From: Paracyclopina nana
Taxonomy: Eukaryota; Arthropoda; Copepoda; Cyclopoida; Cyclopettidae
Reading direction: 5' to 3'
Assembly: GCA_019096065.1 (NCBI GenBank)
Contig: JAGUCH010000005.1
Coordinates: 4,650,001-4,714,000 of the forward strand
DNA length: 64,000 nucleotides
Made by a program: the position numbers and the translations under genes. The stretch's first letter is position 1. Each line of letters begins with the position of its first letter. The notes under the pieces were generated by a model. The model made no database searches. It saw nothing but the letters and a program-made list of their open reading frames with translations, and was not told the DNA's origin. Below, in pieces: positions 9,175 through 61,419 of the stretch.

Positions 9175-11689
9175 TTTACAAGCACGGCAGTATCCTTCAT
9201 GTGTATATATGACTTGACTGGCTAATTGGGCTTCAGCTCAAGTCAAACTTTTTGCCTTTGCACTCGGTGACACATTCATATTTTTTGGTCTGTGCGTTGT
9301 GTTGATCTCTCTCCAAATTTTTGATTGATGCGTAGCACTCGCGTGAATCTAGCTTTTGAGACCTCCTAGCTGGCATCTATTGGCAAAACAAAGAGATGGC
9401 AGCAAAAACGTAAATAATCATCAACACGTCCATCTCACGCTGGGTGGCTTTTGGAGTGGAAAAAAGAGTCTTGCTCGCATACTTTTATGATATTTGCATA
9501 AAGATACAGCTGAAGTACAGCAACAGCAGCCCTGATGCTCTGCTACACGAACCACGATAAGATCTACTTAAAATACAGATTGTTTCTCAAGATAGCTCTG
9601 TTTGTAGCTCATCATCATTTGATGCCAAAAATGTGGCTCCTATATATTGCCAAATTAATCAGCCTGCCACTGCGGGAAAGGGATGTGTCAAAGAGCAGAT
9701 GAACAAAAAGTGCTCAAGCTCTCACAAATTGAGGCCACACGCATACTTTGCGAGGAGGAGACCCCAATAGATTTTGGCACCAAAAGGGAATAATTTGCAT
9801 CCTCATCTTGAAGAACCAATTCAACCGCAGCAGCACACTTTGCGACACTCTAATTAACGCTGCATTTCGATCGATTTACATGGAATGCTTTCATCTGGAT
9901 TATAAGTGCTATCTAAATTATATTGCAAGTGTTGCTTGCAGCATTAATAAGATTGGTCATGTCAGCAACTCATTAGCTGTGGCTTACCAAGTGTGACACA
10001 AGGCAAGCTTGCTCTAAGTTGGCCATAGGTTTCCTATATACTATACTATATTAATAATGGAGTTGGGCCAACTTGGCCATCGGATGAGTGAGTCCTGGGA
10101 GCCTGATAAGACAAAAGTTACGAGCAGCAGGCTAAGCAAAGAGCATCTCTGTGATGACAGCCACCCACCGAGTGTGACATTTCTGAAAAATATTTTAAAA
10201 AGGGTTGAAGGAAGTTTGGCAGACTGCTCCGTCGCGTCACATAGCGTGCCATTAAGAGACGTTTTGCCGATACTCGATCTTTTCCGCCAAGCGCAATCTC
10301 ACATAATGTTGACAAAATTCCTGACCCTGGAGCAAGGTTGAATTCTGCTGGGACTTTGCTGCGAGCCTCGATTCTCTCGAATTTCATGGAATTCTCTCTG
10401 GAAACAAGCAAATACAATTCTCCAATACGCGACGCATTATTGGAGGAAAACATGATTTCCCGCATATATTTGTAGGAAAAAAGCTCAAAAATGAATGCGA
10501 TGGTAAATGGACACCGTGCTATGTAACAAAAGCCCAAATTAGGTTGGCCCATAATTTTGCCTAGCCCAAATTGGTTGTTGTGAGCGTGGAGCTGCGCGCA
10601 ACCAATTTCGGTATAATTCAATTTTCCCTGCTTAATTTGAGCTGTCATCGGCCATCCATAATTGGAAGCTTGTGTCAGCAGTCTATTTGCGGATAAACAA
10701 CCAACAGATGACGACGACGATGAAAGGGTTGATTATGTTTGGCACAAGTCTGTGTTTACAAAAATGGCCCAAGTGTAGTATTTAGTGTTCCAGCTGTGTG
10801 ACCTCTCCTATGTACTCATCGTGGCGTCATCTGACAATTTACTTTAGCTCTTCAAATATAACGCGCGAGCTGCATCCAATAACTGCAATTTAATCTTAAT
10901 GAGCTCTTCAACGGCCCCATAACCCACCGCATAAATTCCTGACCACCGTGATCATTCCAATCTTTTTTATTTAAGAGTCCTTGGAGAAAATGGTGCCATT
11001 AATGGCATAACCATGTTGGCAAAAGATATGCCCCATAAAGGAAAAAGATGCGCTGATATTAAATGGTTTATAACAGCTTTAGATGTTATGGGGTGATTAG
11101 GGTGAAAATAGCTCAATTAAATGATTTAGTTACCACAGATTTATCCTGGTTGCACTTGTGCGCGCGCGCATTTGAAGTGGATTATGTCGTGAAAGCCATC
11201 TGTCGCTGTAGAAAATATGCTACTCTGTCCAGGTTGCAGAACAGCATCGTACCACCAGAATCCACTCTGCAATTCCTTTCTGTCATATATCCTTTATAAG
11301 ATAAGTCAGGTACGTAACGTGGTAAAAGGTAGTACATATATTAAAGTTACACACGCCCTTCCAGTTGGTGAACCACGATACACACAATAAGAAAGCCTAT
11401 GTACTTTAATGGCTTATTCGGCTTTCCCACGCACATAATTCCCTGCACTCGTTCGACTACGGCATCGATTAAACGCACCCTTCTCTGTATATAGTGTATA
11501 GAAGTCAGTAGGTGCGTGGATTGGCAAACCTCAGCTGCTATATTCAAAAGCACACAAACAAGGCCTTCAATAAAGGTCGTGAGTTTCTCTGCAAACAAGC
11601 GCTAAACGCTGTGCAACAAAGGCGGCCTTTCACACCATGAAGGCCTCAGTAGTTCAAAGCCCTCGTGCGGGCTGGTGGCCAGCTAGGTC
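9175..11689. other. gene-poor stretch upstream of the vasohibin gene
   Basis: Nothing recognisable is present. The largest open frame is on the minus strand (10118-10648, 176 codons) and shows no domain or splice context. The last few hundred bases should contain the promoter of the vasohibin gene, but no clear core promoter element could be assigned. Confidence 0.45.
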
Positions 11690-12520
11690 ATGATGCCTGG
11701 CAAAATTTCCCCTCCGCCCAAACAACCCGGTGCCAAATGGCCCGGGTTCCTCATCAACCGATCCGGATTGCCTTTTGACGAGCTCACCTGGAACGAGCTA
11801 TGGGACTTTGCAGCCCATCTATATCCGGAGGCCAAAGTGACCCTACGCGAAATTCAATCAGCTCCACTGTTGCAAGATGTTCACTACCCCAGTCCGCCAC
11901 CGATCAGCGTAGCCAAACAAGGCCGCATTGTCGAGTACCTTGAACGCATCAACGAGTACATGAAGACCCTGACGTACAACCATACGGGAACCCAGTTTTT
12001 CGAGACGAGGCCCAACTCCTCGATGCTGACTTTAATGGAAACAGCCAAGACAATGATAAGGGAAGCCCTACCCATCAAATGTATGGAGGCGGTGGTCCTT
12101 TCAATTTACTTGACGAATGGAGTGCCTTGCTTGGGGAGATTCCCCATCAACTTCAAGTCCGAGCTGCCAGCTCGAGTGGGGATGCCACAAAAGTACTTTT
12201 ACCATGTAGTCCTTGGCTTAGCCCATGGCAACCGTTTCGGAGCTCTAGGGTTGAGTCGGAGGTCGACTCTGATGAGCAAGAATCTAGAGCATACTTCCCT
12301 CTATGATCTTATCAACAACTTTGACGAGGCTTACAAGGACTGTGGCCATCGGCTGGTCAAAGTTCGAGTTGGTAACCTCATCTCGCACGACGCTTACTCA
12401 ATTGCCCCAATTCCTTGGAAGGGCATCACAATTTACCCCCGAGTGGAGGAGCCGCAGGATGTCAAGAACAAAGTGGATAGATTTTCGCGAGAGCTCAAGA
12501 GCTCGCTTCGCTGCAGATAA
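11690..12520 (+). CDS. VASH: vasohibin-like tubulinyl-Tyr carboxypeptidase, intronless
   Basis: This single-exon gene encodes 276 aa and clearly belongs to the vasohibin family. These transglutaminase-like cysteine proteases remove the C-terminal tyrosine of alpha-tubulin, normally with the small chaperone SVBP. Family signatures are NHTGTQFFE (residues 97-105), ALPIKCMEAVVL (126-137), a YLTN segment with RFPINFK (150-156), and RFGALGLSRR (182-191). The predicted catalytic triad is Cys131, His172 and Ser189; the His-Ser spacing of 17 equals that of human VASH1, and the Cys-His interval carries a six-residue insertion. The protein is shorter than vertebrate VASH1 (365 aa) because the terminal extensions are missing. 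Two ATGs sit in tandem; the first is taken as the start. The lack of introns beside intron-containing neighbours could mean retroposition. It converges on BPTF. Confidence 0.92.
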   Translation: MMPGKISPPPKQPGAKWPGFLINRSGLPFDELTWNELWDFAAHLYPEAKVTLREIQSAPLLQDVHYPSPPPISVAKQGRIVEYLERINEYMKTLTYNHTGTQFFETRPNSSMLTLMETAKTMIREALPIKCMEAVVLSIYLTNGVPCLGRFPINFKSELPARVGMPQKYFYHVVLGLAHGNRFGALGLSRRSTLMSKNLEHTSLYDLINNFDEAYKDCGHRLVKVRVGNLISHDAYSIAPIPWKGITIYPRVEEPQDVKNKVDRFSRELKSSLRCR

Positions 12521-18800: not shown

Positions 18801-21800
18801 ACAAGGCTTAATGCATCGCTGAATTACTGTGAGAGCCCTGGCAAATTCTTTGGGAGAGTGGCTAGAGTTGAGTGCCTGAATCCAAGGCTTTCTCATCAAA
18901 TGCCAATTCGCATGCATAAATATCAAAGGCACGTTGGACTCGAGTTGAAGCATTGTCTGTCGGAGGGTGTTGACTAGCTGAACTCTGGTTCCAAATAGCT
19001 GACCCATCCAACGGAAAGCAGATGCATCGGTAAGTGAAAACTTGTGCGACATGTGAGTTCGCTTGTTGCGCTCTTCGTTGGCTTGCACCTTACTCAAGGC
19101 GCTTGCATTGGCAGTGAATTGATTGATATACTGCCTGAAAGTTCCCTCTTGGCCAAGCTTAAAAAATAGAGTGCCTTGGTTGATTTCTTGCACAGTTTTT
19201 CTTGTCATTCTTAGCGGCTCATTAGCAAGAATAGCATCGGGAGGTGGTCTCACAATGATTGTTTCCTATAAGAAAATGAATGTGAAAAATTGTCGCGCTC
19301 ACAATGCTAGAATATTCTGAATAGCCATCTAAAGCTCTAAAGAAAGCGCAAGAAAACCTTTTTTCATTAATACCTAACGCGCGAGACAACCAGTTTGAAA
19401 TACATAAATAAAGCAAGAAAAAAAATTAAAAATATAGGGAAAAGCACTTTCTATTTTGAAATAAACCTAGAAAATGATCATTTCAATAAGCCTTGCAGTT
19501 AAGCGTAAGAAAATAAAGAGGGAGCTCATTCCCCGCGTTTCAGAAAATTCCTCCGCTGATCTAAGCACATTTCAATTGCTATGAAATATTTCTAGACTTT
19601 GTTAATTTGAAAGTCTCATGACTAAAAACGTTTTTTAAAAGTCCTTGTTTTTCTTTAAAGAATATTAAATTAATATTGGACGATTTCAGGGTGCCTTAAT
19701 TGCCACAAAAAGTCTCTAATTAGAACACCAGGTACTTGGGCTTAATTTTCGAAACTCAAAATGGCACTTGCTTATTGGTGAAATATTGCTTAAGAAAATA
19801 ACAAATAATAATAAAAAACTATCTGGAGCAATTTCTCATCAAGTAAATTTTCCCACATAAAAATATATCAATTTAATATGGCAAGATAGAAATTAGTAGT
19901 GCTACACTAATTTCTCTAGGCTAATTTATGATAATTACCTTGTTATCTTTAGGAGGCTCTGTCTTGATTTCGGTTTCCATCGGCTCGGTTTTCACTTCTT
20001 CCTCCTTAATCTCTAGATCATTTGCAACACTTTCAGCAGGTGGAGCAGAAGTGTCCATTGCAATGTCATCATCAAGGAGAGAGTCGGGGAAACCGTCACC
20101 ACGATTTTCTTCACGTTTCCTCAGGCGAACCTCCCGCTCCCGCCTCCTTTCTTCCTCTTTCTTAGACCTTTCGTCATCTTCAGCCTTCCTCTTGGCGTCC
20201 TCTTCTTCTTTAGCTTGTCGGATTATCGCATCAGCGGCCTCTCGGCGCTCCCTTTCTTCTCTGAGTTGCTTTTCTTGGCGATCTTCTTGCGCTTTGACAA
20301 TAGTTTCTAAATAATAATATCTTTTAACATCGGAAAAAAGTTTGGAAAATAGAAAACAGACTTACGATTTTCAAGCTCTAGGAATGACTTCTTGCTGTTA
20401 GATTTAAACTGGGCAGTGAGCTTCTCAGTTAAGAGCATTTGTCGCTCAATTTCAGATCTGTCTGCCTCGATTGCCCCACAAAGTTCGGATTCAAAGTAAC
20501 GTGCGTCAATTGTCTCCATCAGCTCTTCAAATTGGGGGACACTGGAATAATACCGGGCTTCTCCGCTGGCTTCTTCAATAAAGATTCGGCGGCAAAGGAA
20601 CCAATACTTATTGCCAACCCTGTCAAACCCCAAGGCCTGATGGCGAATTTTGGTGCCGGATTTTTCCTGATCGTCCACACAATCAATGACACCTTCCACC
20701 TGGTGGGCTTTGCAAACATGGCATTGCCAATCAAAGTCAGGGACGTCATCCAGAGGGGGATCCAAGCAGGCCAAATGGTACACGCCGTTACACATCTCGC
20801 ACACCACCATATCACCAAGTCTGTGGCACACACGGCAATGGTCCTCAGTCGCAAGTGCACCCTCGTTGGTAATGTCTTCTCTGACTGCATTGGTTGTGAG
20901 GAATTGGTCAGCCATGAAGCCCAAAAGAGAAATGCGTGCATCGATGAAGGACCTGGAATCTTTAGCCTCAGCCACTGGGTATTCAGGGTACTCATTGAGA
21001 ATGGCCAAAGGCTCAGCATTCAAGACCGGATCAGCAGCCAGGTACTGACGCAAAGCTTCAGGCCAAGTCATGCAGTCAACAAAGTACAAGAGAGCATTGA
21101 TGCTGTCTTTGTGGTCCATTGGGCCGAATTGGGTGTTGTCCTTTTCCTCAGCTCTCACAGTTGCCTTAAGAAGGGCAATATGAACTTCGGAAAGAAGGTT
21201 GCTCTGCTCCTCTGAGGCAAGAGCGGCGCAAAAGTCTTCAAATCTGAAGAGTGACAGCCTCAACAAAAGGTAGTAATGCCTCAGGACTTCATACACCCCA
21301 CTGGCTTTGAAGGCTTGATTAGGATCGATCAAAAGATCGTCAGAGGACTTGGGCAGCTCAAGCTTAGGGACAACTTCCTCCTCTGGAGTTTTAAGCCAAA
21401 AGGGCACGGGAGTGGTGCTCCTGGTGATGGCCTGGCCTTGCCCTGAAGACCCTTCAGGCCAGTCAACGTCGCTTTCCACCAACTCGTCAGACTCTTCGCC
21501 AGATTGGCTTTCATTGTCGGATGACTCGTTATCTTTTTCCTCCGCGTCATCATCTATGTAATCATCTTCGGACTCGTCAAAGTCAGAGCCGTAGTGGTAC
21601 TCGCTTTCTTTGTAGTTCACCAAAGAAGGATTGTAGCCCCGTCCAAGCTTTGTTTTCACCTTCGGCTTTGATTTGACATTTTTTCTCGAGCTTACACTGG
21701 ATGACCTGGAGGCTCGGCTGAGAGGGGTGGCAGATCCACTGCGACCATTGACAGTCTTGACACTTGCCGTTGGCGTCTTCTTGATTCTGGACGAGGCTCT

Positions 21801-22094
21801 AGAAGGCGGGGCCGACGTGGTCAGGCTGCTCTTGCGTCTCGAGCTCGACGACATAGTTTTGGTTGGTGGAGTGGGCGACCTCGAGGTCGCTCTAGAAGAG
21901 GTCGGAGTCGAAATTCTGGATCGGGACGAGCTCGGAGTCTCGGAGCGTTCAAGCGACTCCAAATACTTGGGCTTTTGCACGACTCTCTTCCCCTTTGACC
22001 CTGTCGGGGTCTGAGCGGGAACCGAGTCTTGTTCCTCCGAATCGATAAGCCGTTGAGTTTTGGAACGGCGTCTTGAGCTTGCGCGCCCACTCAT
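12890..22094 (-). CDS. BPTF: BPTF / NURF301, large subunit of the NURF chromatin remodeller
   Basis: Seven exons (22094-20366, 20306-19939, 19265-13804, 13741-13574, 13516-13321, 13255-13171, 13107-12890) join in frame to 2741 aa. The product is the nuclear scaffold of the ISWI-containing NURF complex. Visible domains in order: Ser/Arg-rich basic N-terminus; acidic stretch (about 172-213); DDT domain (about 245-355); PHD finger 1 (Cys420-Cys461); a WHIM-like segment with GNKYWFLCRR (494-503); a charged coiled coil in exon 2; a very long Gln/Pro/Thr-rich region; two tandem PHD fingers with C-x-C-x-W-F-H-G cores; and a C-terminal bromodomain with NYYKVVKEPMD and ENCRFFNQ. The last PHD keeps aromatic residues expected for an H3K4me3 cage (IYCVC, PYDE, FYIG, DWFHG). 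Length and order match insect NURF301. Exon 3 alone is 5462 nt. Antisense open frames here are shadows. Confidence 0.96.
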
Positions 22095-24789
22095 GTTTGT
22101 TTCAACGCAAATTGCGTCAGTTCATCAAAATCACATAGTATAATTGCGTAAACATCTGAGCCGGTATCAACAAACACTTTGGCTAGCGACCTTGGGCCTA
22201 TTTGTCCCGTCGGAGACCAAAAGCGGTGATTTGGCCTCTGGAGCGGTCGTCACACTTACCAACGGCGTCTCCCACCCCAAAATCGGCCACAATAGCGATT
22301 TTGCTGAGATCGAATTTTGCCAGGTGAAAGCACGGACACCGTCGAAGCAGTTGAAGCGGCGCTCAAAAGGAGCCCTCAAGGATCAAAGTCGCTTAATACA
22401 ACACTTTACTACTAAAGAATTGCAAACAGCCAACTTTCGGTCCAAGCACCATGGAATACTTTCCTGCGTTACCCGGTAAATCCGCACTCACTTTTAACAA
22501 CAGCCACTTTGACGAGATTTATTGTGACCAAAAAGTGCGCGGGTAACCATGCTATAGGCACGTTGTCCGCCAAGAAAAACGGGCTGAATGGGCGGATTTG
22601 GCGGAAAACCGCCGAGCCGGCCGCAACTGTGCTTGGGCAGTAAGTCTAGAAAATCATTGCTACAGCGCGCCTGCTTAGTCATTTAGCCCGGCCCGGCTCG
22701 ACTTTCCTGTGAATAAACCGTTGTGAAATCTAAAAAGCAATGAAAGAAAAACGCAAATGTTTTCATTTTTTCCTATATTATTAAAATGATAAGGTACAAA
22801 TGAATATTGAATTTGCTATTATTTCACTAAATGAAACCATTTAATAGTGTATAGATGGAATTCAAGAACAGTTAGTAGTGATCCTAGTTTTCAATAAGCG
22901 ACACTGATTGGCGGAAAAAAATGTCCTATCGGGGAATCAGCCAATCAGCGCTTTGTCTCACGTTTTTGTTTGTTTACAAAAGTTCCTTCGTCGCCGAAAG
23001 ACACGTGTTGAAGATCCCTCTTAGCCTTGGGGTGCCTCAAGAGCCTTTCTTTAACCTGGTGCCCGTTTGCAACACCTTTGTCAATGATACTTTCCGTGAA
23101 TCTGAAAGCTATAGTCCTTTTTTTGTCAGGGAAACTTTTCTTTGTATCGCTGCTCTTTTGGGATAACGATTGAAAATAGGGGAAATAGTAATTACTCTTG
23201 CTATTTGCTTAGGGCCCGAGCTGTAAGGGATCATGAAAGTACGTAACATTGATTTTATTGAACTTTTTTTAGATCTGCGAACATTTTGGCTTTGTCCCTT
23301 TTCCGCCTTATGTCAAAGAGGGGACAAGTAAAATCTTAGCATTAGGGTTATTTAAGAGCCTTTTGCATATAGATTGAGCTTGAAACCTGAAATTTGGCGC
23401 GAGCATTCCTCTTCCAATTATATATTTTAGTGTCAAAATTGTCGGTACTGAGAAAGTATTTGTTGAAGGTGCTCCGATTCTTCATCCGGATTAGCTTAGT
23501 ACCAATCTGGCCGCTCCTATCTCGAACCCATTTGAAATCACATGAAGGCTCCGGCTTTCACCACTTCACCATGAATGCCACTTTTTTGACCTTCCAGCCT
23601 TTTGCTCTTCATAGGTATGCCTAACCGCAGTGTTCATGTCATTAGACTCTAGGTATTTCATCAATGCATAATGTAAGGTCGCTCATTTTCCATATCTACA
23701 TTATGTAATTAAATGTGCTCACTATTATGCGTCAGCTATCAATTCCCATTTTACGAAAAATGGGAAAATGAGAAGGGGAAGGGGAGGACACATGGCCCTT
23801 GCCTCAGATATTAAGCTTAAGAACAGATCCTACACATTGGTTATGGTGAAGGCAAAAAAAATTAAAGTTGATATTCCAAAGTTAAAGCGGTAATGGCTTT
23901 CAGCAAAAGTAAGGACACCTCTAGTACATATTCTTTTTTATAAGAATTGAGAAAGCAATGCCATTTTATTTTTATGGCACATTTACATGCTATGAATCAA
24001 TAACATTTTTGTATCATATAATTGTTCAACGTTAGATAGCTTTTTCTAAAACTTCATGAAATGAAAGTTTGCTAAATACTCATAGTCAATCAATTATCCA
24101 ACTTAATTAGAGTTTTGAACCTATTTTAGTTTTAACCTTAAGTTTTTTTTTTGAAAGATCACCTAAAAGTTTAATTGTGTGCTTTTGATTTTCGATCGTG
24201 ATTTTCATAGATATGAACTTACTCCAGTAGTCGTATAAATAAGTCTTGTAAACGTAGTTTTGACGTTGGCATACGAGATACTTACTACATAACGCATCTA
24301 TTTATTGTTGTATTTTCATAAGAGCTCCTTTACAGCTCCAGGGCACGCCAGTGGAGCAGAGCTATTTACCGTAAGCATAAGGAAAATAATTTTATGAATG
24401 ATACTAAATTAACAATAAATGTTGAATGTACTTATGAGTGAGTGAATTTTTCGTAAAATCTAATTAAGTGAAGCTTAGAACGAAGCTATTTGAAATTGTT
24501 TGCAATAGCTTCGCATTGATAATTTTGATTCTGAAAGTTTCAGCTTGCTATCAGGAATTAAGCTCATAAATTGGTGCCAGTCGAGGTGCATTATTATTAG
24601 TATATGGCTCAAGTACGACATGACGCATGCACTCAACTGCAGTTTATGTGATTGCTTCCCACACTCGTGAGTTTTTCCATCTGACAGTTTTCTTGTATCA
24701 TGGAGGGCAACGTCTACTTATATTTGCGCGAGTATCATAGACAAGTAAGCTAGCAAGATAAGGATGTAAATTGCAAGTCAGTTGCCGAG
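22095..24789. other. divergent intergenic region, BPTF / MFS transporter
   Basis: About 2.7 kb separates two divergently transcribed genes. A possible BPTF 5' UTR exon ends at a donor-like GGTAAGTG on the minus strand near 22257. Two CCAAT boxes lie close together near 22935-22948, with an ATTGG (reverse CCAAT) near 22908. No coding gene is supported; the open frames at 22921-23166 and 23394-23624 lack recognisable features. Confidence 0.45.
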
Positions 24790-26453: not shown

Positions 26454-29400
26454 TCACATTTGCTCAATATCCTGAATGAGATCAAATTTTTCATCGGCTT
26501 TCTCCTTTGTTTGAGTAGCTACTTCTGAGTTGACCTGGAGCTTGCCTTCAGTGGTGCTAAGTCTTTTTTTCCCACCATTTCTCCCAGTGAGCCAAAATGT
26601 TCTCATGTTACCCTTCCCCTAAAAAAATTTCCAGCTGCGCCTATCCCATTAAAAGGGTCAAGTTAAGCGGTATAAAATACCTTTATTTTGATGATGCCCC
26701 TTTCTTCGTAGGTGAATTCTTCGTGAGTATCTAGAATTTGTTTTGTTTGGTCAGACATGTGTATTTTGCATGGCTCCCCACTCGACTCCATCCTGGAGGC
26801 TGTGTTAACAGTGTCTCCAAATAAGCAATAGCGAGGCATCTTTCTGCCAACCACGCCAGCAACACAAGGACCAGAATGGAGACCAACTCTTAATTTCAGA
26901 AACTCCACTGGTCTGTGTGGAATGGCGAAAAATTTGATTTCCTGCATCAAATGAAGTGCCATTGAGGCCACCTCTGATGCATGCATTTTCTCGTTCCACG
27001 AGACTACCATGTAGGCATCTCCTATGGTCTCCACTTTGTAGACATCGTAGGCTTCAATGATGGAGTCGAAACAGGTATAGAGGTCGTTGAGTAGTGTCAC
27101 CACTTGCATTGGAGTGCTGGTGGCTGAGAGAGAGGTGAAGTCGACCACGTCGCTGAAGTAGATAGTTACACATTCGAAGCTTTCAGCCTCTACTTTGCGT
27201 CCTTGCTTCAGGTCATCTGCAACTGGCCTAGAAATAGAGTGACAGCTTGCTATTTCTAATGTGGGTTTAGCAGCCCGATTCAGCATAGTATAAAGAGCAC
27301 ATATATGTTGTGACATTTGCACCAAAAGGTGCTTACTCACAATATTCTCTGGAAAATAATTTCTTCCAAATTTAAAGTGGAAGTAAGATAAGTAAACTGT
27401 GGGGTAAATCCATAACTTACCTTGGTAGCATGCTGTAAAGCAAGGCATCCGTTTTCTTCTTTTCTTCGGTTAAAAGATGCGTTCTCTCAGCGACTTGCTT
27501 TTCCAAATTGGACGCATGCTTCTCTAGGATGGCAACCATGTTGTCGAAAATGTTTGGTTTCCTTTGGATAAAAAAGCTTTGAAAATTCTGCAGAATGTAA
27601 TAAAAGAACTATTAGAATAGAAGAGATGAAAAATGCTCACAAGCCAGCTTGAAGTGCTCTTAATGAATTTCGTACTGAGCGAAAATCTGGTCGTTGAGAC
27701 GGATCTTCTTTCCAACATTCAACAATGCATTTTTTGATGTATTCCTCGCAGCTCAGAACCTAACATAATTTACGCAAATGATAATTTATTCCATAGAGGA
27801 TTCCCAACTTACATCGATTGAAGGCCTCACTTCACCGAAAATTGCAGGGTTTCGTAACTTGTTAAGCAAAACTGAAAAAATAGAAGACTAACAAAAGTCG
27901 CGAGTGTGATTAATTAATTATCTCACATGAAACTTCGCGTGAAGATACAAATACTTTTCCCCATGGGCCTTTTCTTCCAATAATTTCATAGAGTATGAGA
28001 GCAAAGGAATAGACATCGCCCTTTTGCGATCCAGCGTTTGCTTTGGTGGCTACAAAGGATATGGGCTCCCAAACGGATTCTGCCGAAATTGCAGTCGCAA
28101 GTGAAGCAAGGCTGGGAGCTGGTACGGTTGAGTGATGGTGGCTTTCTTTGTTTGACCTCAAAAATTCAGGGGCTTTCCAAAGCAAGTCGAAACGGTTGAC
28201 TCCAATCCTCATATCTTCTCCGGCTTAATTAGAAATGGGGGATGTTAGAAAAAGATTACTTTTTTTATTTTCCACTTTAATTACCCTTGAAATGTCTGAG
28301 GCCAAAGTCAGAGATTTGCAGCACCCATCTCGAGTCCACGAGGCAGTTGGCTGGCTTCAAGTTGCCATGATACACAATTTCACTTTCATGCAAGTAAATC
28401 ATGCCCCGAATGAGATCCCCAACCAAAGATGCGATGAACATATTGTCCAGTCTGTAGTCGCTATTATTAAGCACATGGTGCAAGTTTCCCCTGGCACAAA
28501 GCTGGGTAAGAATGGCAATGTGACCAGTCTCGACGCAAGCTCCAATAAATGGAACAAGATTTTCGTGCCTCAGATCTCTCATCTATATAAATTGGAGGAA
28601 AAGCATACAAGATTACGAGTTTCCTCGTTAAGTTGCGACCAACACGATCGATATTTGATGCGATCATAATTATCATCCGCTAGCTCACCGAATTGAGTTC
28701 CTTCAAAATGGTCCTGTTCAAATCAACCGTCTTCTTATTGACCCTCCTAATGACAACCACATTTCCTCGGTACACTCCAACTGTAGCAGTCCTTGATCCC
28801 TGATGATGAAAGCTGCTACATTTCTTGGGAAAGAAATAACGAAGGTCCTGGAAAAGGATAAATCAACCAATTATGCAATACGCAAGGCTTCATATTGCAC
28901 CCTCTCGTTGATGTTATAGGGACTTTGTTCCATTTTTTCTTGCAATGTTAGGATATCCTTAAAGTCAACTTTCCACAAAAGTCTGGCCAACTTTTGCTCG
29001 TATTGGTAATGCCTATGACGAAGTTCATTTTTCCTTCCTCATCATTCATGTACGAAATGTATCTACCTGATCCCAAACCATATGAGGATGAGGACCATGG
29101 CAAAGAGGAAAATCAAGCCGAAAACAAGCTCAGTGGCTAGTTTGCAGTGCTCATTGTCGAATCCGCACGAAGGTTTTCCCAAGGGAGGGACAGGATAATC
29201 GGATTCATTCTTTGTGGTCCACATTATCTTTCGAGAAAAGTTGAGGCGCAACTCCTGCGCATAAAAGTAGTAAAGAGGGCATAACAGTGTCACAAAGTTA
29301 CACCTATACATACTGGGATTTCGTGGTCATTTTCGGTCACAAAGTCTCCGACTGTTTCGAATTTGGTCCCACATTTTGGGCTTTCTACCATTGCAAGTAG

Positions 29401-36739: not shown

Positions 36740-37340
36740 TGCCCTCCGCGAAAGAACTGACTTGAGCAAAAAACCAGCGCCAGCCCATAAGGAAGGCAGT
36801 AATTTCCAATTTCTATTCAAAAAAGTGACATGCATTCTCGTATGCACAAAAAGATTTGAAATGTGAGATCAGTTCCTGTGCAGGTCCCACTACACCCTAA
36901 TTACACCCATACCATAGTATGAAAAACGTAAAAGTAGGATGATTGTTCAAGGTCTACAAACCAGTCCGTGCAGGTTCTGCTTTGCCGTGCTCATTATGAT
37001 CAAAAAGTACAATTAATTTTATGATGATAGTTGCATAACGTTCGAACACATGCTGAAGACTTGACATAATAGCTGGCAGAGCTTCATATAATTAGCGTAA
37101 GATGTACGTACATTGCCCTATTTTACGTACAGCACTCAAGAAAATTAGTAGGCAACTTTAGAGCTGGAAAATCGGGCTTAATTCACACAGAAGAATCATT
37201 GCATCAAGGATACATAATGTTGAGCTATATTGAGAGAGAACATTGATTTTCGGCGCAGAAGGAAACAATGGATCATCAATTAATTGAAGCACGAATTTGT
37301 ACGATATAATATGAGATACATAGTAGAGATCTCTAGGGCT
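36740..37340. other. intergenic, nothing recognised
   Basis: About 600 bp upstream of the small secreted protein gene. No open frame, RNA gene or repeat could be supported; the promoter of that gene should lie here. Confidence 0.4.
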
Positions 37341-37556
37341 ATTAATATTAGTGTTCTTGATATTCCTCCGCGACTTCGTTTTACTACGTTATAGGGTAAC
37401 GCGTAGAGGCATCAGCTGACCCCATTTTGTTCAGTTCATGGGGATTTCTATGTAGTGAATTGAACAAAATGAGTACAGCTGATTTTCTCTACGGTTCACC
37501 CTATTACGTAGTAAAACGAAGTCGCGGAGGAATATCTAGAACCCTAATTAATATAT
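37341..37556. repeat. imperfect foldback element (about 100-bp arms)
   Basis: The sequence starting near 37345 (GTGTTCTTGATATTCCTCCG and on) reappears as a reverse complement ending near 37553. The best-conserved part is GATATTCCTCCGCGACTTCG (37359-37378 against 37536-37517). Pairing continues inward through the GTTTTACTACG, CAGCTGA and TTTGTTCA parts, with scattered mismatches, to a small centre near 37440. The shape is that of a MITE-like foldback or a long hairpin RNA. It lies in the gap between two minus-strand genes. Confidence 0.85.
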
Positions 37557-37669
37557 ACTATATGTATAGCTGACAAGTAGGAATGCAAAGGCTGGAAAAA
37601 AAGCAGATCACAATTGGAATATCGTTTGTCAAAGAGTTATCAGAGCAAAAATACACTGCTGCTGGGAAT

Positions 37670-40600
37670 TCACGTGGTGAGCTTGTTGGGTATGGACTTG
37701 GATCCCCTCCCAAGAATCTTAGCCTTCGTGTCGGGGAAACGACCTCGTTTGGTGCGCGCATGCAAGGTCACCACGGGAAACTGGTCTTGTATGCTCACAT
37801 TGACGTCCACTGGGTAGGACAGGAGATGGCCTGAGGTTTTCTCCGCAGACATATAATCATTCCAGTTTTGCAGGGAGGCCTCGCGCACCGATCTTGCGCA
37901 CGCTTCCGATCCGGGGTCGGTGAAAACGGGGTCGGACCTGCCCAAGTGCTCTGCGAACAGGTTGACGCGGAACGCATGAACCTCGCCTCTAGGCAAGGTT
38001 TCGTAGTCTGAGCAAATGTGGCCCACTTGGTAGCACCCAATGGCCAACTCGGAGTCGCGGTCGCCATCGAGGGACCTCTGATTGATATTTGCGCTCCCTG
38101 TGATCACATACGCGTCGTCGACCACCATCAGCTTGGAATGAACGTAGATCATGGATCGTCGGTTTCTTCGCAATCGTGCGGCTCGAGAGCCCTTGGGCGG
38201 GATGGGCAACTGAGGCGGAATCGAATTTGCGCCCTCCTTTTTGCCCAAGCAGAAGAACATGAGGTATTCGGTGGGATGATTATCGAGGCCTGAAGCATAA
38301 ATGGCCTGGGCGATGCGAGAGTACATCATTTGCATGGTGTGCCTCTGCCAAAAGAGCATCTCTTGGATGGCACTGTCCGTGGGAACGCCCTCGGGGTGCA
38401 TAGGGATGACGATGTACACAGTGAACCTACATATATGTAATGATACAATAAATTGCAAAAAAATATATACGGGAAAACAGCACCTTCTGCCTGCAGTTAA
38501 GGCCTCGCATATCTGCTGCGTGATTTCCATAGGGATGACGTTGTAGCAGTGCACATCATTGTCGTCGAGCCACCCATAGGCAGATCCCATGAAGTATTGG
38601 TTCTCAATGTAGATGAACCTTTTAGCTCTCCGTATCGCGTTGGTGTAGGCTCGCATTATCGAGTTGTCCACAGACCGACCTTTTTTGGTGGTGAACGAAG
38701 TCTCATTTTCCAGCTGGAACCTATAACAGAGAGGAAAAACGCCCGGCTAATTGGCTTTTCTTTCAAAAAATAATAATCTCCGGCAGTAGCAGCGAGCAAA
38801 TAATAAGCCTCGTTAAAAGAAGAGATTTTCACTCATGCCATATTCCACTTTATAGTATGTAACATTCATTGATATAGGTATATGTGACAAAAAAGGATGA
38901 TAAAGTACCTGGCTGAATCCGAGGTGATTGAACGGAATACTTGAACGGCCCACGAGTCTGCATCCCTTTCACCGAGACCAGGAACGAGATTGATGTCGTA
39001 GTCAGGCAATTCGATGCTCTGTATAAGAAGTCGACTATTGAGAGGCCTCTCCTTGCCCCACCTGAAGGAAACGTCAATAACACGCGCGAATGCTGTACAT
39101 ATTTAGATGACGCGTACCTTTCAACAAAGTTAATCATGATATCCCTCGCGGCTGGGCCCTCCACGCGCGCGTGAATGTCTTGCCAAGGCATTCGAGGCCC
39201 AAACATGGCCTTAATGGATGGCTCACAAGGCTGGTAAAAGTCGTCTTTGTGAACGTTCAACAAGGTAGTAAAAAGGCTGTGGTCCGGTGTGTCGTATCGC
39301 CCATCTTGCAGAGAAGAAAAGCACTCTAAAGCTAGGCCCTTTTCACTCTATATACACTCCTCTTGTTCACTTACCAGTTAAATCAATCCCTCCCACATAA
39401 GCCACAATGCGTCGGCTGGATTTGTGCATAAATTGGCTTTTCGCACTTATGTGCTCGCCAGGTGGACTCCCATCAGCATCGACTATCACGGCCTTTTGGT
39501 GATGGCTGTAACCTAAGTTAGCCGTGAAGTGAGCCTCCAGGTCCTTGTATTCTCTCGTTTTTGTTTGGCGGCCAACGCGAGCAACAAAAACGCGAGTACC
39601 TGCAATTATAAGCCCACGTACCAATATTGATCAAGTACATTGGTACATTTGCTACAACACCTTTGAAGAAGTTTTCCGTCTCAGTATCGTGAGTTCCCAT
39701 AATGGATGTAGTCTCTCCCCAAATCATCAATAAGACTCGGACTCCATCCTCTGCCTTTTTCTTCAGCAGTTCTCCCAGGCTTAGATTAGCCAAACTCACC
39801 TCCTCTTCCGTTTGTAGAAGCTTCCAATCATCTCCTCTGTTTTTTAAAGTGGAAAAATAATTATTTCTTCGGCCTTTCTTGCTGGAAGACAATAGAGTTC
39901 CCAGAAGAGCAGACGATAAACTTTTCATGCTTCCCCTTTGTTCCCACTCTTCTGGCTCTCGCTTACCTCAACATTTTTATGCTCGCATTCACAGACCAGC
40001 CAGTGATGTAAATGAATTTTTCTGCAGCCACGAGGCTACGGTAGAGATCAATCCATAGAGAAGGGGGATGCGAGGATCTTTGAAGTTTTTTGCCATCCGA
40101 GTCGACGATCATTTTGCTTCTTGAACACGAGTAGAGAGTAACACGGTTTCCTTTCCTGAGTGGAAAATAAGTATCTGGACAAGGCAGCTCACTCTGGCCT
40201 AAATTGTCTTCGTAAGGCTTGTATATGATTTTGATAAAAAGCTGCCCTTGAGGCTTGTTCTGCGCATCGAGGACGTCATGCCAGCCTGAAATGATGGCTA
40301 TATAAATAGCAAACCGGGAGATTTATGATCCAATTTAATTCTGATAGGCAGATGTCATTTATCCTTTTCCCAAGGAGAGCAATTTCGCAGCTCTGCAGTT
40401 TATTAAGGCGCGGAGGCAAACATCACTTGCTCTTCATTTGTGTAAAGTGAATTAAAAAAGCCCTTAGAGAAAGTTGGCTGCGAGCAGCTAATTTTATGAG
40501 CAAGGAGCCGTTGACTGAATAGGCTATAATTCTATTTTGAGCTACGGACAGAGAGCACCTTTCGTCAAAGTTTCAGTTGAGGCTCAAATTGAGTTTTCTA

Positions 40601-41613
40601 TGTTTTCCACATAACTTGCTCTTTACAAGCGAGCAAGTGAAAACTCCATGTGTTGCGGAGGGAGAAAGTAATTTATTGCAAAAATCTGAGCACATTTCTT
40701 CTCTTCTTGATCAGCGCAAGATGCGAAACTAAGCCAATTATAGCAGAAAAGAGCAAGACGCGCTCTCAAAAAGAGTAGCATGGCCAAATTATGTCCTTTG
40801 GGAGCAACATTTCAGCACCAAGCCTTTCCACCTAAATTAAGCTTTCTTCAAGGCTCTCGCAAATTAATGTTAGGCCAGGAAAAAATCCCAAGCTGCCTTA
40901 AACAGAGACATTGTTCAACAAACCATTATGCAATCCTATGTCAAAAATAAGAGCTTGCAAATATGCAAGGTTCACTGAACAAAGACTGCTGACCATCAAA
41001 CGTAGGATTGCCAAGAGACAGCCCAAAAGTACTATAACTTTTGATACTCGACATGATGCCAAGCCTTTTTTCATTTAGCCACATACCACATACCTGATAT
41101 GCTCATTTTAGGCCTCCTCAGAAGCTCCTCAACTGGAATGCTAACCTCTCCAACTTGATCTGTGCCAAGCTCATCTTGATCCTTTATGCGGAACAGCAGT
41201 TTTTTTGCATAATGGCAAACTGATACTCTGAAAAACTCGTTCCATTGAGGGCACATGTTGTTGTAGATCACCTGGCAGAAATTGAAATTTGCCCTTATTG
41301 TAAGATACTGACATGACCGCATATTGCATCACTAGTCTGTAAAAAAGTATCTACTCACCGATGTTGTTATTATGCGGGTGCTGTCAAGGAAGACTGCGAC
41401 ATACGGATCTGTGACGTCTTTTTCTTGGCCAAAACACCGTTTGATATTGAACAAGAAGTTGTCAGTATCAGGCAGATCTTTGGCCTCTTGAATGTCAACC
41501 TCAAGTTCGCCATGAAGGAAAAGTCCTTCACGTAATCTCAGAGATTTCCTCCGAAAGTCATCCTCTCGTTCACGCCTAGACTTTGATCGCCACCAAGTCG
41601 TCATGGATCCCAT
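37670..41613 (-). CDS. C2-domain phospholipase D of the plant type
   Basis: Nine exons (41613-41359, 41271-41094, 40285-39967, 39836-39622, 39599-39375, 39304-39118, 39061-38909, 38720-38484, 38426-37670) sum to 842 codons (841 aa). The enzyme class cleaves phosphatidylcholine to phosphatidic acid and choline. An N-terminal C2 domain (LHGELEVDIQEAKDLPD, then DPYVAVFLD) precedes two HKD motifs, HHQKAVIVDAD and VHSKLMVVDDAYVITGSAN. Between and around them are typical plant-PLD blocks: ITGWSVN, LLKKKAEDGVRVLLMIW, YVGGIDL, DIHARVEGPAARD, YIENQYFMGS, EYLMFFCLGKKE, INQRSLDGDRDSE, and a terminal FPDTKAKILG ending in LTT. The PX-PH modules of animal PLD1/2 are absent. The C2 is followed by WHDVLDAQNKPQG as in plant enzymes. 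A splice acceptor just before the ATG suggests a 5' UTR intron. Confidence 0.93.
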
Positions 41614-44834: not shown

Positions 44835-47800
44835 TTAATAAACAAGAGTGCGGCTGATTTGAACGGCCAAAGCTCGAATTCCACGATAAATAGAAAAAGC
44901 CGTGGGCTTAATTTCTTCGGGTGGAAGTAAAAATCCACGAGATCCTTTGTCTGGCAGTTCAAACAAAAATACCCATTTTATACCCATGCTCCCACGAGCC
45001 CAGTCATCGGAGCCTCCGCTGGCAAAGTACTGAATGTGAGGTGAGGATCCGACTGAGTAGCTGCGACCACTGGCAGCCTCAATTTCACTGGCTACAAGTT
45101 CACCCATGATTTGCAGGTCCCGCCAATCCGGAATCCGCTCCTCGGTGTAGCTCCACGGGTAAAGCACTTTCTGCCCGTAGCTGTGAATCATTAGGTAGCT
45201 CTACAAGTAGAATTAATGGACCTTTTTTAGTTCCTACGGAGGAAAGCAGTTGCTTGTTGCTCCTTTCTTGGGCTTTGGTTCTCTCCCAATTACGCGCAAC
45301 CACATTATACAGGATTATACATATGATTATGATATGGCTTGAAAGCTTTTGGCCATGTGTAATTAGTCACAAAAGGAAGTGAAATTCAAGTAGACTTCGG
45401 TGTGAGGAAAAAGGTACCACAAAATTCGATTATTGGTCTTCTACCATTATTGCAAATATTGGTGGAATAATTTAGGCTCCTTCATCACTGGAATTACTCT
45501 TCGTATAATGAAATAGTATTATGCAAGCCTCAGACCCAGAATAGGAAAAGTTTGTGTGCCTAGAGCAATTTTTCATCTACTTTGCTTTACAAGCCTGCAC
45601 TCTCCCTCTGAAAGATTCAAATAACCTTGACGACATATCCCTGCATGGCATATAAGAATCAAGCCGTAAGTTGATGTTGCTCGCGCTTAGTTGTACTCCA
45701 TTGCGTAATGGGAAAATAACCTGAGAAAAAGGTTAGCTTTACCACGAGATTCGTGCGAATGGATGTGACAAATTTGGCAATATTGCGCGACTCCGGCTCC
45801 GAAAATGGGAATGGACCGGAGTACGTTTCAATGCAGTTCAACTGAGTTCCTCCTTGGGGGTTCAGTGTGGAAACGTCGGACCAGTGATAGCCAAAGTTCC
45901 TATTCAAGTCCACCCCATTACAATTGGCCACGAGAAGAGCTGCCAAGCCTCCATTGGAGGCACGATTTTTTCTCCACAGTCGGTTACCCCAAAACGAGTA
46001 CTCGTATCTGTAACATAATAAGAAATTGGGAGCTTGATATGCTTGGCATGGTACAAAAATAGATGCTACGCATACCCGTCAGGATTTGCCACTGGAAGTA
46101 TGTAGAAGTCATAAAAGTCAAGAATATCCATGTTCTCCGCGTAGTTTTCGACAAGTTCTCGCATAAGGAAAGTTGCGGTCGCCGGTGAGATCCATTCTCG
46201 TGCGTGGATTCCTGAAGAGAAGAAGCCATCATTTCATGCACTGATCAATTCCACATAATTATGCCAACATCATCATTAGGATTGCAGCTTAAAAGCCGTT
46301 CGTGGCAACAAAACTGGTTGCAGCTCCGCCAAGGTCAATGTATGTAAGGTCGTCCAACTGAATTTTATGCAGTGGCCAGCCAAAGCCAAGCAGGAAAAGA
46401 AATTGATTTGTATAGTTAAATGGTCAGTGCATTGCGGCGTGGGCAAAAAAATTAGTCTCACAATAAACGCGTGGAAGACGAGGAAGAGGAGGCAAAAGTT
46501 CAGCTAGCTTTAGCTGGAAAACACCATTAAGGAAACCCACTCCCTCGTCTCAACCTCATGGCCACTTAACGTAGCAAATAAATATTACCAGCTTCGATGA
46601 AAATCGCAGGCTTGTCGGAGTACTTCTTTGACCCAATCTTCAGTACGCGCATTCTCCGCTTTTGCACCGAGGGCCCAATGTCGATCACTTTGGCCAACTG
46701 GGGATAGTTGTCCTCCAGATAAAACATGTACTCGTTGATGACATTAAGCCTTTGGTAGTTGTCCCAGTTCATTGGGTGACCTGAAATTATTCAAGGTGAG
46801 GAAAACCTCTGTGGGCATTGACCTTGTACTCCAAAACCAGAATATAGTATTTTCTTGGGCCAGCTTTAGCATGGTTCAAAATGTACTACATAAGCCAATG
46901 AGTGACATTGACCACTCCGTGTGTAAAGCCCGAGGGTGGAAGGTCATTGCACCGGCCAACTAACATAGATACGATCGCAATTGCTTGGTAACTGAAGGTC
47001 AGCAGCTACTCTTCATTTGATACGCGTATGATTTTCAGTGAATTTAAATACTTGGTAATCTAATGATGAGGGAGATGTGTGCATCTCGCATGATCAACAT
47101 TTTCAATGGCACCATTTTTCCTTAAAGCTTCTCAAGGACGAAGAAGAACCCTTTTGAATAGCATATACTACTACTTTTCAGGAAGTATAATTTTTCGCTA
47201 AAGATTTTTCACTTTTTATAGCGGCATGGCCGCACCCTTATAGCATGTCTGAATATGGAAAAGAATATCTTTTTGTTTTCGTGGTTTTTGGCATATCCTT
47301 GGCTACATCGTGATAATAAGGTTGTCGATTTTCCTCTACGAAAGTGCCAATGTGAATTTGCTTATTGTCACGCAATCTTTCTCACCTTTTCGGAATTTGC
47401 GATGCTTCCTGGGAGGAGACGAGCCTTCAAACGATTGTCGGCTAGGATTCTGATAAATGTAGTCAAATGGACGCATTAGAATGCTAAACAACCGAGAAAA
47501 CGGCCCATTTCCTTTTGGAGAAATAGAAAAAGACAGAGATGGGAAAATTATAATACAAAAGCCAAATACCCAACCGCATATTTCTTGATTTCTAATTAGG
47601 GCTTACCTTGTCTTCTCCATCCTGAATTACCAACACGATCTGATGCACTATCCGGGATTACATTGGTGTCAACTCTCCTCATTTGACTATCAATTTCGTG
47701 CTGCACATCTCTCATGAGAACCTGCACGCAACAAGTTATATTTGTCGAAAAAAGCTACTTTATAATATGCTTTCCTAGTCTGCATGTAGCACACAAAAAG

Positions 47801-49359: not shown

Positions 49360-52300
49360 TTGTTTTCACGGTCGCTTAGCAAACAAAGACACATCAAATT
49401 AGTATTGGAAAGATGCATTTCCATTAAGGCGAAAATATTTTCAGGAGAAACCTCGAGGTCCCTTCAACTTACAATGAATTGGTCAATGTGTAGCTTTTTA
49501 TCAACAAAACTCAAAAACCTAATAGTGTCTCCAAAATGAAAAATTTGCTAGATATCATTGTTAAAAAGGACTTAGTTATGATACTGCTGTCTATTCATCT
49601 GGAACCAAAAAGAAAAATCTTATGCCAGGCAATTTCAAGATTTCTTATTTTTACAAGTACAAAGATATGATACCTTGAGGCCTGTTTGTTGCGCAAATGA
49701 TGATTAATTTGCTTTGCTCTTCAACAAGACTTGAAAATTGAATGAGAAGTTCTGACATCACTCCTTTGAGACCAGAAGATTCTGTCTGCCCTCTGTTAAC
49801 AGCAATGCCATCAAACTAATGGAAAAAAGCATCCTGAAATTAATTTTGTCGCTCTCACAGATAAATTATGACTGCCATACCTCATCAAAGAAAACTATGC
49901 ATGGTTGATGTTTCTTCGCAAAGTTGAAAGCACTTGAAATCAGCCGTTCACTCTCACCAATAAACTTGGACAGAAGGGTGCTGCCACTCACCCTTATGAG
50001 TGGTAGTTTGGCCTCTGCTGCAAGGCTGCGTGCAATCAGGGTTTTGCCATTTCCTTAAGAGAAGTCATTAGAAGTCAAAAAAGATATAAAATAAGTAAAA
50101 AAAATTTTTTTGAATAATTAAAGAAACATATTTTGATTTTGATGGCTAAAGAATGCATCAAAAACTTGTCATCGTTGCTCAATCTACACTAGCGCCATCT
50201 ATGGCTGGAAATCGGCAAAACTTAAAAAAACATGTGCAAACAAAGACCAAGCTCCTCAAAATGTTTCAAAATAACAATTTGAAAGACTTGGGTGTTGAGA
50301 AATGCAAAAAAAAAGATTTTTTTACTGCCATTTTTGGCAATTTGCCATAAGAAAACTCGTTCATGAAATTCTCTATAGACAGGTCATTTTTAAAGCAAAT
50401 GAAAAATAAAAAAGCCAGTCTTAAAATTTCACAATTGTCATCATTTCTTATTTTATGAAAAAAATTGTGGCAAGAAAAACAGATTTTGCTCAATCTACAC
50501 TAGCGCCATCTATGGCTGGAAATCGGCAAAACTTAAAAAAACATGTGCAAACAAAGACCATGCTCCTCAAAATGTTTCAAAATAACAATTTGAAAGACTT
50601 GGGTGTTGAGAAATGCAAAGTAAAAAAAGATTTTTTTACTGCCATTTTTTGCAATTTGCCATAAGAAAACTCGTTCATGAAATTCTCTATAGACAGGTCA
50701 TTTTTAAAGCAAATGAAAAATAAAAAAGCCAGTCTTAAAATTTCACAATTGTCATCATTTCTTATTTTATGAAAAAAATTGTGGCAAGAAAAACAGATTT
50801 TGCTCAATCTACACTAGCGCCATCTATGGCTGGAAATTGGCAAAACTTAAAAAAACATGTGCAAACAAAGACCAAGCTCCTCAAAATGTTTCAAAATAAC
50901 AATTTGAAAGACTTGGGTGTTGAGAAATGCAAAAAAAAAAAGATTTTTTTACTGCCATTTTTTGCAATTTGCCATAAGAAAACTCGTTCATGAAATTCTC
51001 TATAGACAGGTCATTTTTAAAGCAAATGAAAAATAAAAAAGCCAGTCTTAAAATTTCACAATTGTCATCATTTCTTATTTTATGAAAAAAATTGTGGCAA
51101 GAAAAACAGATTTTGCTCAATCTACACTAGCGCCATCTATGGCTGGAAATTGGCAAAACTTAAAAAAACATGTGCAAACAAAGACCAAGCTCCTCAAAAT
51201 GTTTCAAAATAACAATTTGAAAGACTTGGGTGTTGAGAAATGCAAAGTAAAAAAAGATTTTTTACTGCCATTTTTTGCAATTTGCCATAAGAAAACTCGT
51301 TCATGAAATTCTCTATAGACAGGTCATTTTTAAAGCAAATGAAAAATAAAAAAGCCAGTCTTAAAATTTCACAATTGTCATCATTTCTTATTTTATGAAA
51401 AAAATTGTGGCAAGAAAAACAGATTTTGCTCAATCTACACTAGCGCCATCTATGGCTGGAAATCGGCAAAACTTAAAAAAACATGTGCAAACAAAGACCA
51501 AGCTCCTCAAAATGTTTCAAAATAACAATTTGAAAGACTTGGGTGTTGAGAAATGCAAAGTAAAAAAAGATTTTTTTACTGCCATTTTTTGCAATTTGCC
51601 ATAAGAAAACTCGTTCATGAAATTCTCTATAGACAGGTCATTTTTAAAGCAAATGAAAAATAAAAAAGCCAGTCTTAAAATTTCACAATTGTCATCATTT
51701 CTTATTTTATGAAAAAAATTGTGGCAAGAAAAACAGATTTTGCTCAATCTACACTAGCGCCATCTATGGCTGGAAATCGGCAAAACTTAAAAAAACATGT
51801 GCAAACAAAGACCAAGCTCCTCAAAATGTTTCAAAATAACAATTTGAAAGACTTGGGTGTTGAGAAATGCAAAGTAAAAAAAGATTTTTTTACTGCCATT
51901 TTTTGCAATTTGCCATAAGAAAACTCGTTCATGAAATTCTCTATAGACAGGTCATTTTTAAAGCAAATGAAAAATAAAAAAGCCAGTCTTAAAATTTCAC
52001 AATTGTCATCATTTCTTATTTTATGAAAAAAATTGTTGCAAGAAAAACTGATTTTGCTCAATCTACACTAGCGCCATCTATGGCTGGAAATTGGCAAAAC
52101 TTAAAAAAACATGTGCAAACAAAGACCAAGCTCCTCAAAATGTTTCAAAATAACAATTTGAAAGACTTGGGTGTTGAGAAATGCAAAAAAAAAAAAGATT
52201 TTTTTACTGCCATTTTTTGCAATTTGCCATAAGAAAACTCGTTCATGAAATTCTCTATAGACAGGTCATTTTTAAAGCAAATGAAAAATAAAAAAGCCAG

Positions 52301-58605: not shown

Positions 58606-58871
58606 TTTCTAATCTTCTATTTTTGCTTTGTCTTTGTGATCACAAATTTATTCATGCTGTGTGTAAATTATAAAAGGCTACAAACAATAATTGTATTGCT
58701 AACAGCACCTATCAGTGTTTCTGTCAAGTTTTGCTTTTTGGCAAGTTTAGCAAGAAATTGAACAATGCATAAATTTTGTTGAATTGAGCAGATAAAAGAT
58801 AATAGAGTGTTTTCAATTGTGTAATCAGCTTCTAGGGTAGTGTTTAGATAGTTGTTTTACTTTGCAGGAAA

Positions 58872-61189: not shown

Positions 61190-61419
61190 GTATGCAAAAA
61201 TTGTATTTTATATGATGGAAAGCAATTTTGGCATGTATAATTCAGTTTACCAATTTGTCTCAGTTCATATAACTACACATATATAAAAGTTCTGACGTTT
61301 TACTTTATCAAGTGACACACATTATAAAGTATTTTATAAGGTGTGTTGCTCCTCTGTTTGACCAGAGACCATGATATTGTCCAAGAAGTAAATCACATTG
61401 CAGAAAAAAGGGGGAAAAT

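What the first reader, a model, noticed from the sequence alone, without database searches (positions are those of the whole stretch)
37670..41613. A plant-type C2 phospholipase D in an animal genome
The predicted 841-aa protein is C2-HKD-HKD with block after block of plant PLD signatures and no PX or PH domain, unlike animal PLD1/PLD2. It has nine exons with animal-sized introns and sits between normal animal genes, so it is resident and not contamination. It may be an ancient eukaryotic C2-PLD kept in a few animal lineages, or an acquisition by horizontal transfer. It could give phosphatidic-acid signalling with calcium control through C2.
Basis: partly seen in the sequence, partly recalled or inferred. 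Interest (0 to 1): 0.75.

Follow-up and report, generated by a model that had tools for sequence, protein, structure and literature searches.

The report
Plant-type phospholipase D in an arthropod
An arthropod chromosome carries an intact, intron-rich gene for a kind of phospholipase D usually described from plants, and three relatives sit elsewhere in the same genome; it is a real resident gene, but a similar gene was already reported in a comb jelly.

Summary
Confirmed. Best solved relative: Arabidopsis PLDalpha1, 534 bits, against 111 for human PLD1. Animal genes on both sides and a host-wide palindromic repeat about 120 bp from the stop codon rule against contamination. Trees place it with plant C2-PLD in three of four sets holding both PX-PH and bacterial rows; the fourth is unresolved. 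Transfer versus ancient retention stays open: it is about as far from its paralogues as from the plant. Plant-type PLD in an animal is not new in print: PMC6005172 lists two in a ctenophore. Two of four active-site calcium ligands are changed here; the C7 and C5 copies keep all four, the C2 copy also departs at two others. Calcium may act mainly through C2.

The parts
41359..41613 (-). Exon 1: start codon, basic N-terminus, first part of C2 domain
   Evidence: splice model; Pfam C2 at residues 35-146
41094..41271 (-). Exon 2: rest of C2 core
39967..40285 (-). Exon 3: end of C2, linker, ITGWSV block
39661..39836 (-). Exon 4: MGTHDxET block
39375..39599 (-). Exon 5: HKD1 (HQKAVIVD, H343/K345/D350)
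39118..39304 (-). Exon 6: DGRYDTP and PWQDIH block; position 426 is Gln where PLDalpha1 has His406
38909..39061 (-). Exon 7: FRSITSDS block
38484..38720 (-). Exon 8: IYIENQYFMGSAY block
37670..38426 (-). Exon 9: HKD2 (HSKLMVVD, H673/K675/D680), GSANINQRS, PLD_C tail ending in LTT, stop
37347..37548 (.). Palindromic repeat (MITE-like) about 120 bases beyond the stop codon; copies on contigs C1-C9 tie the locus to the host genome
31674..33845 (-). Neighbouring gene: RMI1_N + Tudor (TDRD3-like on my reading)
26669..27469 (-). Neighbouring gene: guanylate cyclase catalytic domain
20313..22121 (-). Neighbouring gene: DDT + WSD + PHD (BPTF-like on my reading)
11687..12517 (+). Neighbouring gene: Vasohibin
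   Evidence: 9.7e-80
45665..46078 (-). Neighbouring gene on the other side: M14 zinc carboxypeptidase exon

Best explanation
This is a resident, intact gene for a plant-type C2 phospholipase D in an arthropod, one of four in the genome. The encoded enzyme should be a cytosolic protein that is drawn to membranes by its N-terminal C2 domain when calcium rises, and whose paired HKD motifs cut phospholipids such as phosphatidylcholine to phosphatidic acid and a free head group. Shown here: gene structure, domains, both HKD motifs, family relationship, genomic residency, three paralogues, and the change of two of the four catalytic calcium ligands. Inferred: expression, enzyme activity, substrate, calcium-driven targeting, and that this copy relies less on catalytic calcium than PLDalpha1. 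Its presence in this lineage looks old: it goes back either to an early eukaryotic family kept in few animal lineages or to an ancient transfer, not to a recent acquisition from a land plant.
For: Nine GT-AG exons, uninterrupted 828-aa frame. C2, PLDc x2, PLDc_2, PLD_C above Pfam cut-offs. PLDalpha1 534 bits over 777 residues, human PLD1 111 bits. Four PLD_C matches among five candidates in the own genome, on three contigs; the C7 and C5 copies, scanned by Pfam, have C2, PLD_C and two PLDc stretches each. Identity of the window protein 46.2, 44.6 and 42.7% to the three paralogues, 41.9% to PLDalpha1, 33.0% to human PLD1. The PLD1/2-type gene on C3 matches human PLD1 at 434 bits and PLDalpha1 at 115. 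The five C2-PLDs form one group at 100/99, 96/96 and 99/98 (one search set A). GC3 0.57, within the 0.34-0.61 of eight flanking ORFs. No intron position shared between the four copies. Active-site calcium ligands named in PMC11174929 (passages) are D187, H372, H406, E722; here C198, H393, Q426, E736.
Against: No transcript or enzyme data. In one search set B (15 rows) the five-row group has support of only 27/21, and a tree holding this protein next to the PX-PH rows is not rejected (p 0.239; 0.238). Only one plant sequence (PLDalpha1) and no algal, ctenophore, amoebozoan or other arthropod sequence could be put in the trees, so origin cannot be settled. The D187 position lies in a weakly aligned stretch. 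The change of two calcium ligands could also mean reduced activity.
Confidence: 0.85

Rival explanations
1. Ancient retention: C2-PLD was present in early eukaryotes, duplicated before plants and animals split, and has been lost in most animals but kept in a few lineages such as this arthropod and perhaps ctenophores.
For: The window protein lies 1.30-1.44 changes per site from its paralogues and 1.50-1.52 from PLDalpha1, while the arthropod and human PX-PH enzymes are about 1.0-1.2 apart (sums of branch lengths). PLDalpha1 falls among the four animal copies in the best trees. No shared introns between copies. Red algae and mosses have C2-PLDs (passages), and a ctenophore has two plant-type PLDs.
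Against: The support for PLDalpha1 among the copies is mixed (38-98), and one clade of the four animal copies is not rejected at 0.05 in any test: p 0.072, 0.102 and 0.252, 0.436, 0.054 and 0.458. The C7 and C5 copies are a younger pair (about 0.65 apart). Mammals are stated to have no C2-PLD (PMC11174929 passage), so many losses are needed. Arthropod rates may be fast.
Confidence: 0.45
2. Horizontal transfer: an ancestor of this arthropod took up a C2-PLD gene from an alga, plant or other eukaryote, which then gained introns and duplicated into four copies.
For: A 2011 paper calls C2-PLDs unique to plants (PMC3056787 passage). The two ctenophore genes were classed as transfers after topology tests (PMC6005172). 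Intron positions differ in every copy, as would be expected if introns were gained after arrival.
Against: Identities to PLDalpha1 are only 40.2-45.8%, within or below those between copies, 42.7-59.2% (set with PX-PH rows); a recent land-plant donor is unlikely. The animal copies do not group to the exclusion of the plant in any best tree built here, though weakly so.
Confidence: 0.45
3. Contamination or assembly join with plant or algal DNA.
For: Only the plant-like similarity.
Against: 7.6-Mb contig, animal genes on both sides, host-like GC3, four diverged copies on three contigs, and a host-wide repeat about 120 bases from the stop.
Confidence: 0.01
4. A divergent member of the ordinary animal PX-PH PLD1/2 family that lost PX and PH and gained a C2 domain.
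For: With one of the four taxon sets, placement next to the PX-PH rows is not rejected (p 0.239, one search set B; 0.238).
Against: Rejected at p 6.6e-8 and 2.9e-5 (one search set A). PX-PH rows are a separate group at 99-100 support. It carries the PLD_C tail, and the genome has a separate PLD1/2-type gene.
Confidence: 0.03

Closest known systems
Arabidopsis PLDalpha1 (PDB 6kz8/6kz9), plant C2-PLD
   Same: C2-HKD-HKD-PLD_C order, both HKD motifs, conserved blocks throughout, same LTT C-terminus; 42% identity
   Different: Host is an arthropod; C2 has Asp where PLDalpha1 has none (TDPYV against TQLYA); two of four catalytic calcium ligands changed; eight introns
Mnemiopsis leidyi ML00555a (PLD alpha 1, C2 + PLD) and ML49231a (PLD gamma 1), ctenophore genes classed as transfers in PMC6005172
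   Same: Plant-type PLD in an animal, with introns (14 and 6)
Bacterial PLDs of Abditibacteriota and Myxococcota MAGs (L030-L032)
   Same: Best-scoring prokaryotic relatives found; next to the C2-PLDs set A; L030 carries a PLD_C match just over the cut-off (28.7 against 27 bits)
   Different: No C2 domain by Pfam; 27-31% identity; not next to the C2-PLDs set B
Animal PLD1/PLD2 (PX-PH)
   Same: HKD-HKD catalytic core and, on general knowledge, the same reaction
   Different: PX and PH in place of C2, no PLD_C (recalled); 33% identity in the core

Membership tests
C2-PLD (plant-type) | N-terminal C2 domain | tested here: met
   Pfam C2 6.9e-16, residues 35-146
C2-PLD (plant-type) | Two HxKxxxxD motifs | tested here: met
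   H343-K345-D350 and H673-K675-D680
C2-PLD (plant-type) | PLD_C (PF12357) C-terminal domain | tested here: met
   1.2e-12
C2-PLD (plant-type) | Groups with a plant C2-PLD in a tree | tested here: met
   100/99, 96/96, 99/98 (A); unresolved, 27/21, in 68 B; one plant sequence only
C2-PLD (plant-type) | Typical, not defining: four active-site calcium ligands (D187, H372, H406, E722 of PLDalpha1), reported conserved in the plant C2-PLDs listed in PMC11174929 | tested here: not met
   C198, H393, Q426, E736: two of four kept. C7 and C5 copies keep all four; the C2 copy has D, F, H, A. Bears on mechanism, not on membership
C2-PLD (plant-type) | Calcium-dependent phospholipase D activity | not testable with these tools
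   needs enzyme assay
PX-PH PLD (animal PLD1/PLD2) | PX and PH domains | tested here: not met
   no PX or PH hit at E <= 0.001
PX-PH PLD (animal PLD1/PLD2) | Falls inside the PX-PH clade | tested here: not met
   PX-PH rows form a group without it, 99-100 support; being next to that group is not excluded in 68 B (p 0.239)
Horizontally acquired gene | Nested within a donor lineage | tested here: inconclusive
   one plant row only; AU p 0.054-0.458 for one clade of animal copies

The most novel reading that the evidence does not exclude
C2-PLD is not a plant invention but an early eukaryotic enzyme family, already duplicated before plants and animals parted, and lost from most animals; this arthropod keeps several of the ancient paralogues, one of which (the window gene) has altered its catalytic calcium site and takes its calcium control mainly through C2.
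Probability: 0.25. Interest if true: 0.6.

Novelty: new member of a known kind. Interest (0 to 1): 0.4.

Why it matters
C2-PLDs have been described as unique to plants (PMC3056787, 2011). Four copies in an arthropod, beside a PLD1/2-type gene, show that the family also persists in some animals. Animal phosphatidic-acid signalling may then have a second, calcium-controlled enzyme class there, and the origin of the family (early eukaryote or repeated transfer) becomes testable with wider sampling.

Tried and rejected
Strict patterns from alignment A2 (window protein, C7 and C5 copies, PLDalpha1) found no relative among 130 prokaryotic and 40 viral candidate stretches; the broader A3 found relatives in 477 of 544 prokaryotic stretches (best 80 kept) and 0 of 75 viral stretches. 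The window protein plus the PX-PH rows as one clade was rejected in two sets (A), not in a third (B). Shared introns between copies were looked for and not found: 19 model introns (8, 2, 4, 5; one of the C2 copy's two, 46 bases, may be an artefact of its frame breaks), no common position; nearest are window column 328 phase 1 and C5 copy column 331 phase 0 in a gappy stretch. No COX1 match in the held assembly, so the species could not be read from it (control rang in 8 of 14). The nematode cuticle collagen and mite Blo t 5 families gave no match, but nothing rang in the controls either, so this shows little; 80 cuticle-protein (PF00379) matches point to an arthropod (that this family marks arthropods is recalled). 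PMC3095279, PMC12090732 and PMC7864903 were looked at by passages and gave nothing on animal C2-PLD. No Rfam family or tRNA in the window. Structure prediction was not tried: the spliced protein is not readable letter for letter from the DNA, as that tool requires.

Full report
What is there. The finding is real. On the minus strand from 41613 to 37670 nine exons with GT-AG introns join into an open frame of 828 codons. Pfam finds C2, two PLDc stretches, PLDc_2 and the plant-type PLD_C tail, and nothing else at E <= 0.001. The best solved relative is Arabidopsis PLDalpha1 (6kz8) with 533.6 bits over residues 52-828; human PLD1 reaches 110.7 bits.

Is it resident? Yes, as far as sequence can show. 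The window lies at C5:4650001-4714000 of a 91.95-Mb assembly of 10 contigs; C5 is 7.65 Mb. Of ten flanking ORFs scanned, five have Pfam matches: vasohibin, a BPTF-like gene, a guanylate cyclase domain, a TDRD3-like gene and an M14 carboxypeptidase exon (the names BPTF and TDRD3 are my reading of the domains). GC3 of the gene is 0.57, within the 0.34-0.61 of eight flanking ORFs. A palindromic repeat at 37347-37548 (62-nt arms, 90% complementary) lies about 120 bases beyond the stop codon; a search with 37340-37560 gave 91 matching rows, about 41 main places since each copy matches on both strands, spread over contigs C1 to C9 and up to 100% identical; only 40 of 140 candidates were scored, so this is a lower bound. 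That repeat family is the host's. The genome has 80 matches to the cuticle-protein family PF00379, so it is most likely an arthropod; the small genome would suit a mite, which is a guess.

A family of four. The genome has three more C2-PLDs, at C2:8794671-8797042, C7:4801629-4804554 and C5:374367-377493, and PLD_C is found at these four places (four matches among five candidates). Identities to the window protein are 46.2 (C2), 44.6 (C7) and 42.7% (C5); the C7 and C5 copies are 59.2% identical to each other. Their intron positions share nothing. The C2 copy reads out of frame around HKD1 and apparently once more further on, which may be assembly error or decay. The genome also has an ordinary PLD1/2-type catalytic core on C3, 434 bits to human PLD1. 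Of 22 PX matches in the genome none lies near that gene; the search reads exon by exon, so a split PX domain could be missed, and PH was not searched.

Where it belongs. With 32 rows the window protein, its three paralogues and PLDalpha1 form one group at 100/99, and the three PX-PH rows another at 100/100. With 18 rows the five-row group has 96/96 and joining the window protein to the PX-PH rows is rejected at p 6.6e-8. With 17 rows, without PDB 7v53, these are 99/98 and p 2.9e-5 (one search set A). With a different set of 15 rows the five-row group falls to 27/21 and the join is not rejected, p 0.239 (0.238, the same rows), though the PX-PH rows still exclude the window protein at 100/100 (one search set B). 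So the deep placement leans on the choice of bacteria, while domain content and pairwise identity (41.9% to PLDalpha1, 33.0% to human PLD1) agree with C2-PLD. The best-scoring prokaryotic proteins are from Abditibacteriota and Myxococcota MAGs at 27-31% identity, without C2 by Pfam.

Origin. PLDalpha1 falls among the four animal copies in the best trees, but one clade of animal copies is not rejected at 0.05 in any test (p 0.072; 0.102 and 0.252; 0.436; 0.054 and 0.458). The window protein is 1.30-1.44 changes per site from its paralogues and 1.50-1.52 from the plant enzyme; arthropod and human PLD1/2 enzymes are about 1.0-1.2 apart, and the C7 and C5 copies only about 0.65. This argues against a recent land-plant donor and leaves ancient retention and old transfer about equally likely. 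One plant sequence cannot decide it.

How it probably works. Both HKD motifs are intact, so hydrolysis to phosphatidic acid is expected from knowledge of the family. PMC11174929 (passages) names four active-site calcium ligands of PLDalpha1: D187, H372, H406 and E722. In the window protein these are C198, H393, Q426 and E736. The C7 and C5 copies keep all four; the C2 copy has D, F, H and A, so it departs at the other two. The C2 domain, in contrast, has aspartates (TDPYV, KDQD) where PLDalpha1 has TQLYA and KDDN; the paper says non-alpha plant enzymes have aspartates in the C2 loops that alpha enzymes lack, without naming positions in the passages I saw. I infer a division: calcium acting mainly on membrane targeting in this copy, and on both targeting and catalysis in the C7 and C5 copies. 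None of this is tested.

What is known. PMC3056787 (passages) states that C2-PLDs are unique to plants; PMC11174929 (passages) that mammalian cells have none; PMC8991923 (passages) describes three in a red alga; PMC9607936 (passages) finds the earliest alpha/epsilon-clade members in red algae. Against novelty, PMC6005172 (section 12 and passages) lists two plant-type PLDs of the ctenophore Mnemiopsis, one with a C2 domain, as transfers from non-animal eukaryotes, with 14 and 6 introns. In the listings of my ten searches of the open-access library I saw no paper on an arthropod C2-PLD; three of the listings were cut (15 of 82, 15 of 151 and 15 of 28 papers shown), and most subscription papers and all protein databases lie outside that search, so automatic annotations of such genes may well exist.

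Verdict. Correct and resident, more interesting than a single gene because there are four, but a new occurrence of a known enzyme kind rather than a new kind.

Noticed in passing
window 37347-37548: About 200-bp palindromic MITE-like repeat, some copies 100% identical, about 41 main places on contigs C1-C9 as a lower bound.
   Followed up: partly
window 50175-52761, 56880-58305, 61738-63980: Three long tandem arrays with units of 314, 172 and 173 bases.
   Followed up: no
window 58848-59810 and 59759-61237, + strand: Long open frames of 321 and 493 codons with low GC3 (0.34, 0.38) and no Pfam match.
   Followed up: no
L021 (C2:8793500-8798500), about 2060-2200: The C2-PLD copy on contig C2 reads out of frame around HKD1: assembly error or decay.
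   Followed up: partly
L030, L031, L032: Bacterial PLDs from Abditibacteriota and Myxococcota MAGs that lie next to C2-PLDs in three of four trees; L030 has a PLD_C match.
   Followed up: partly
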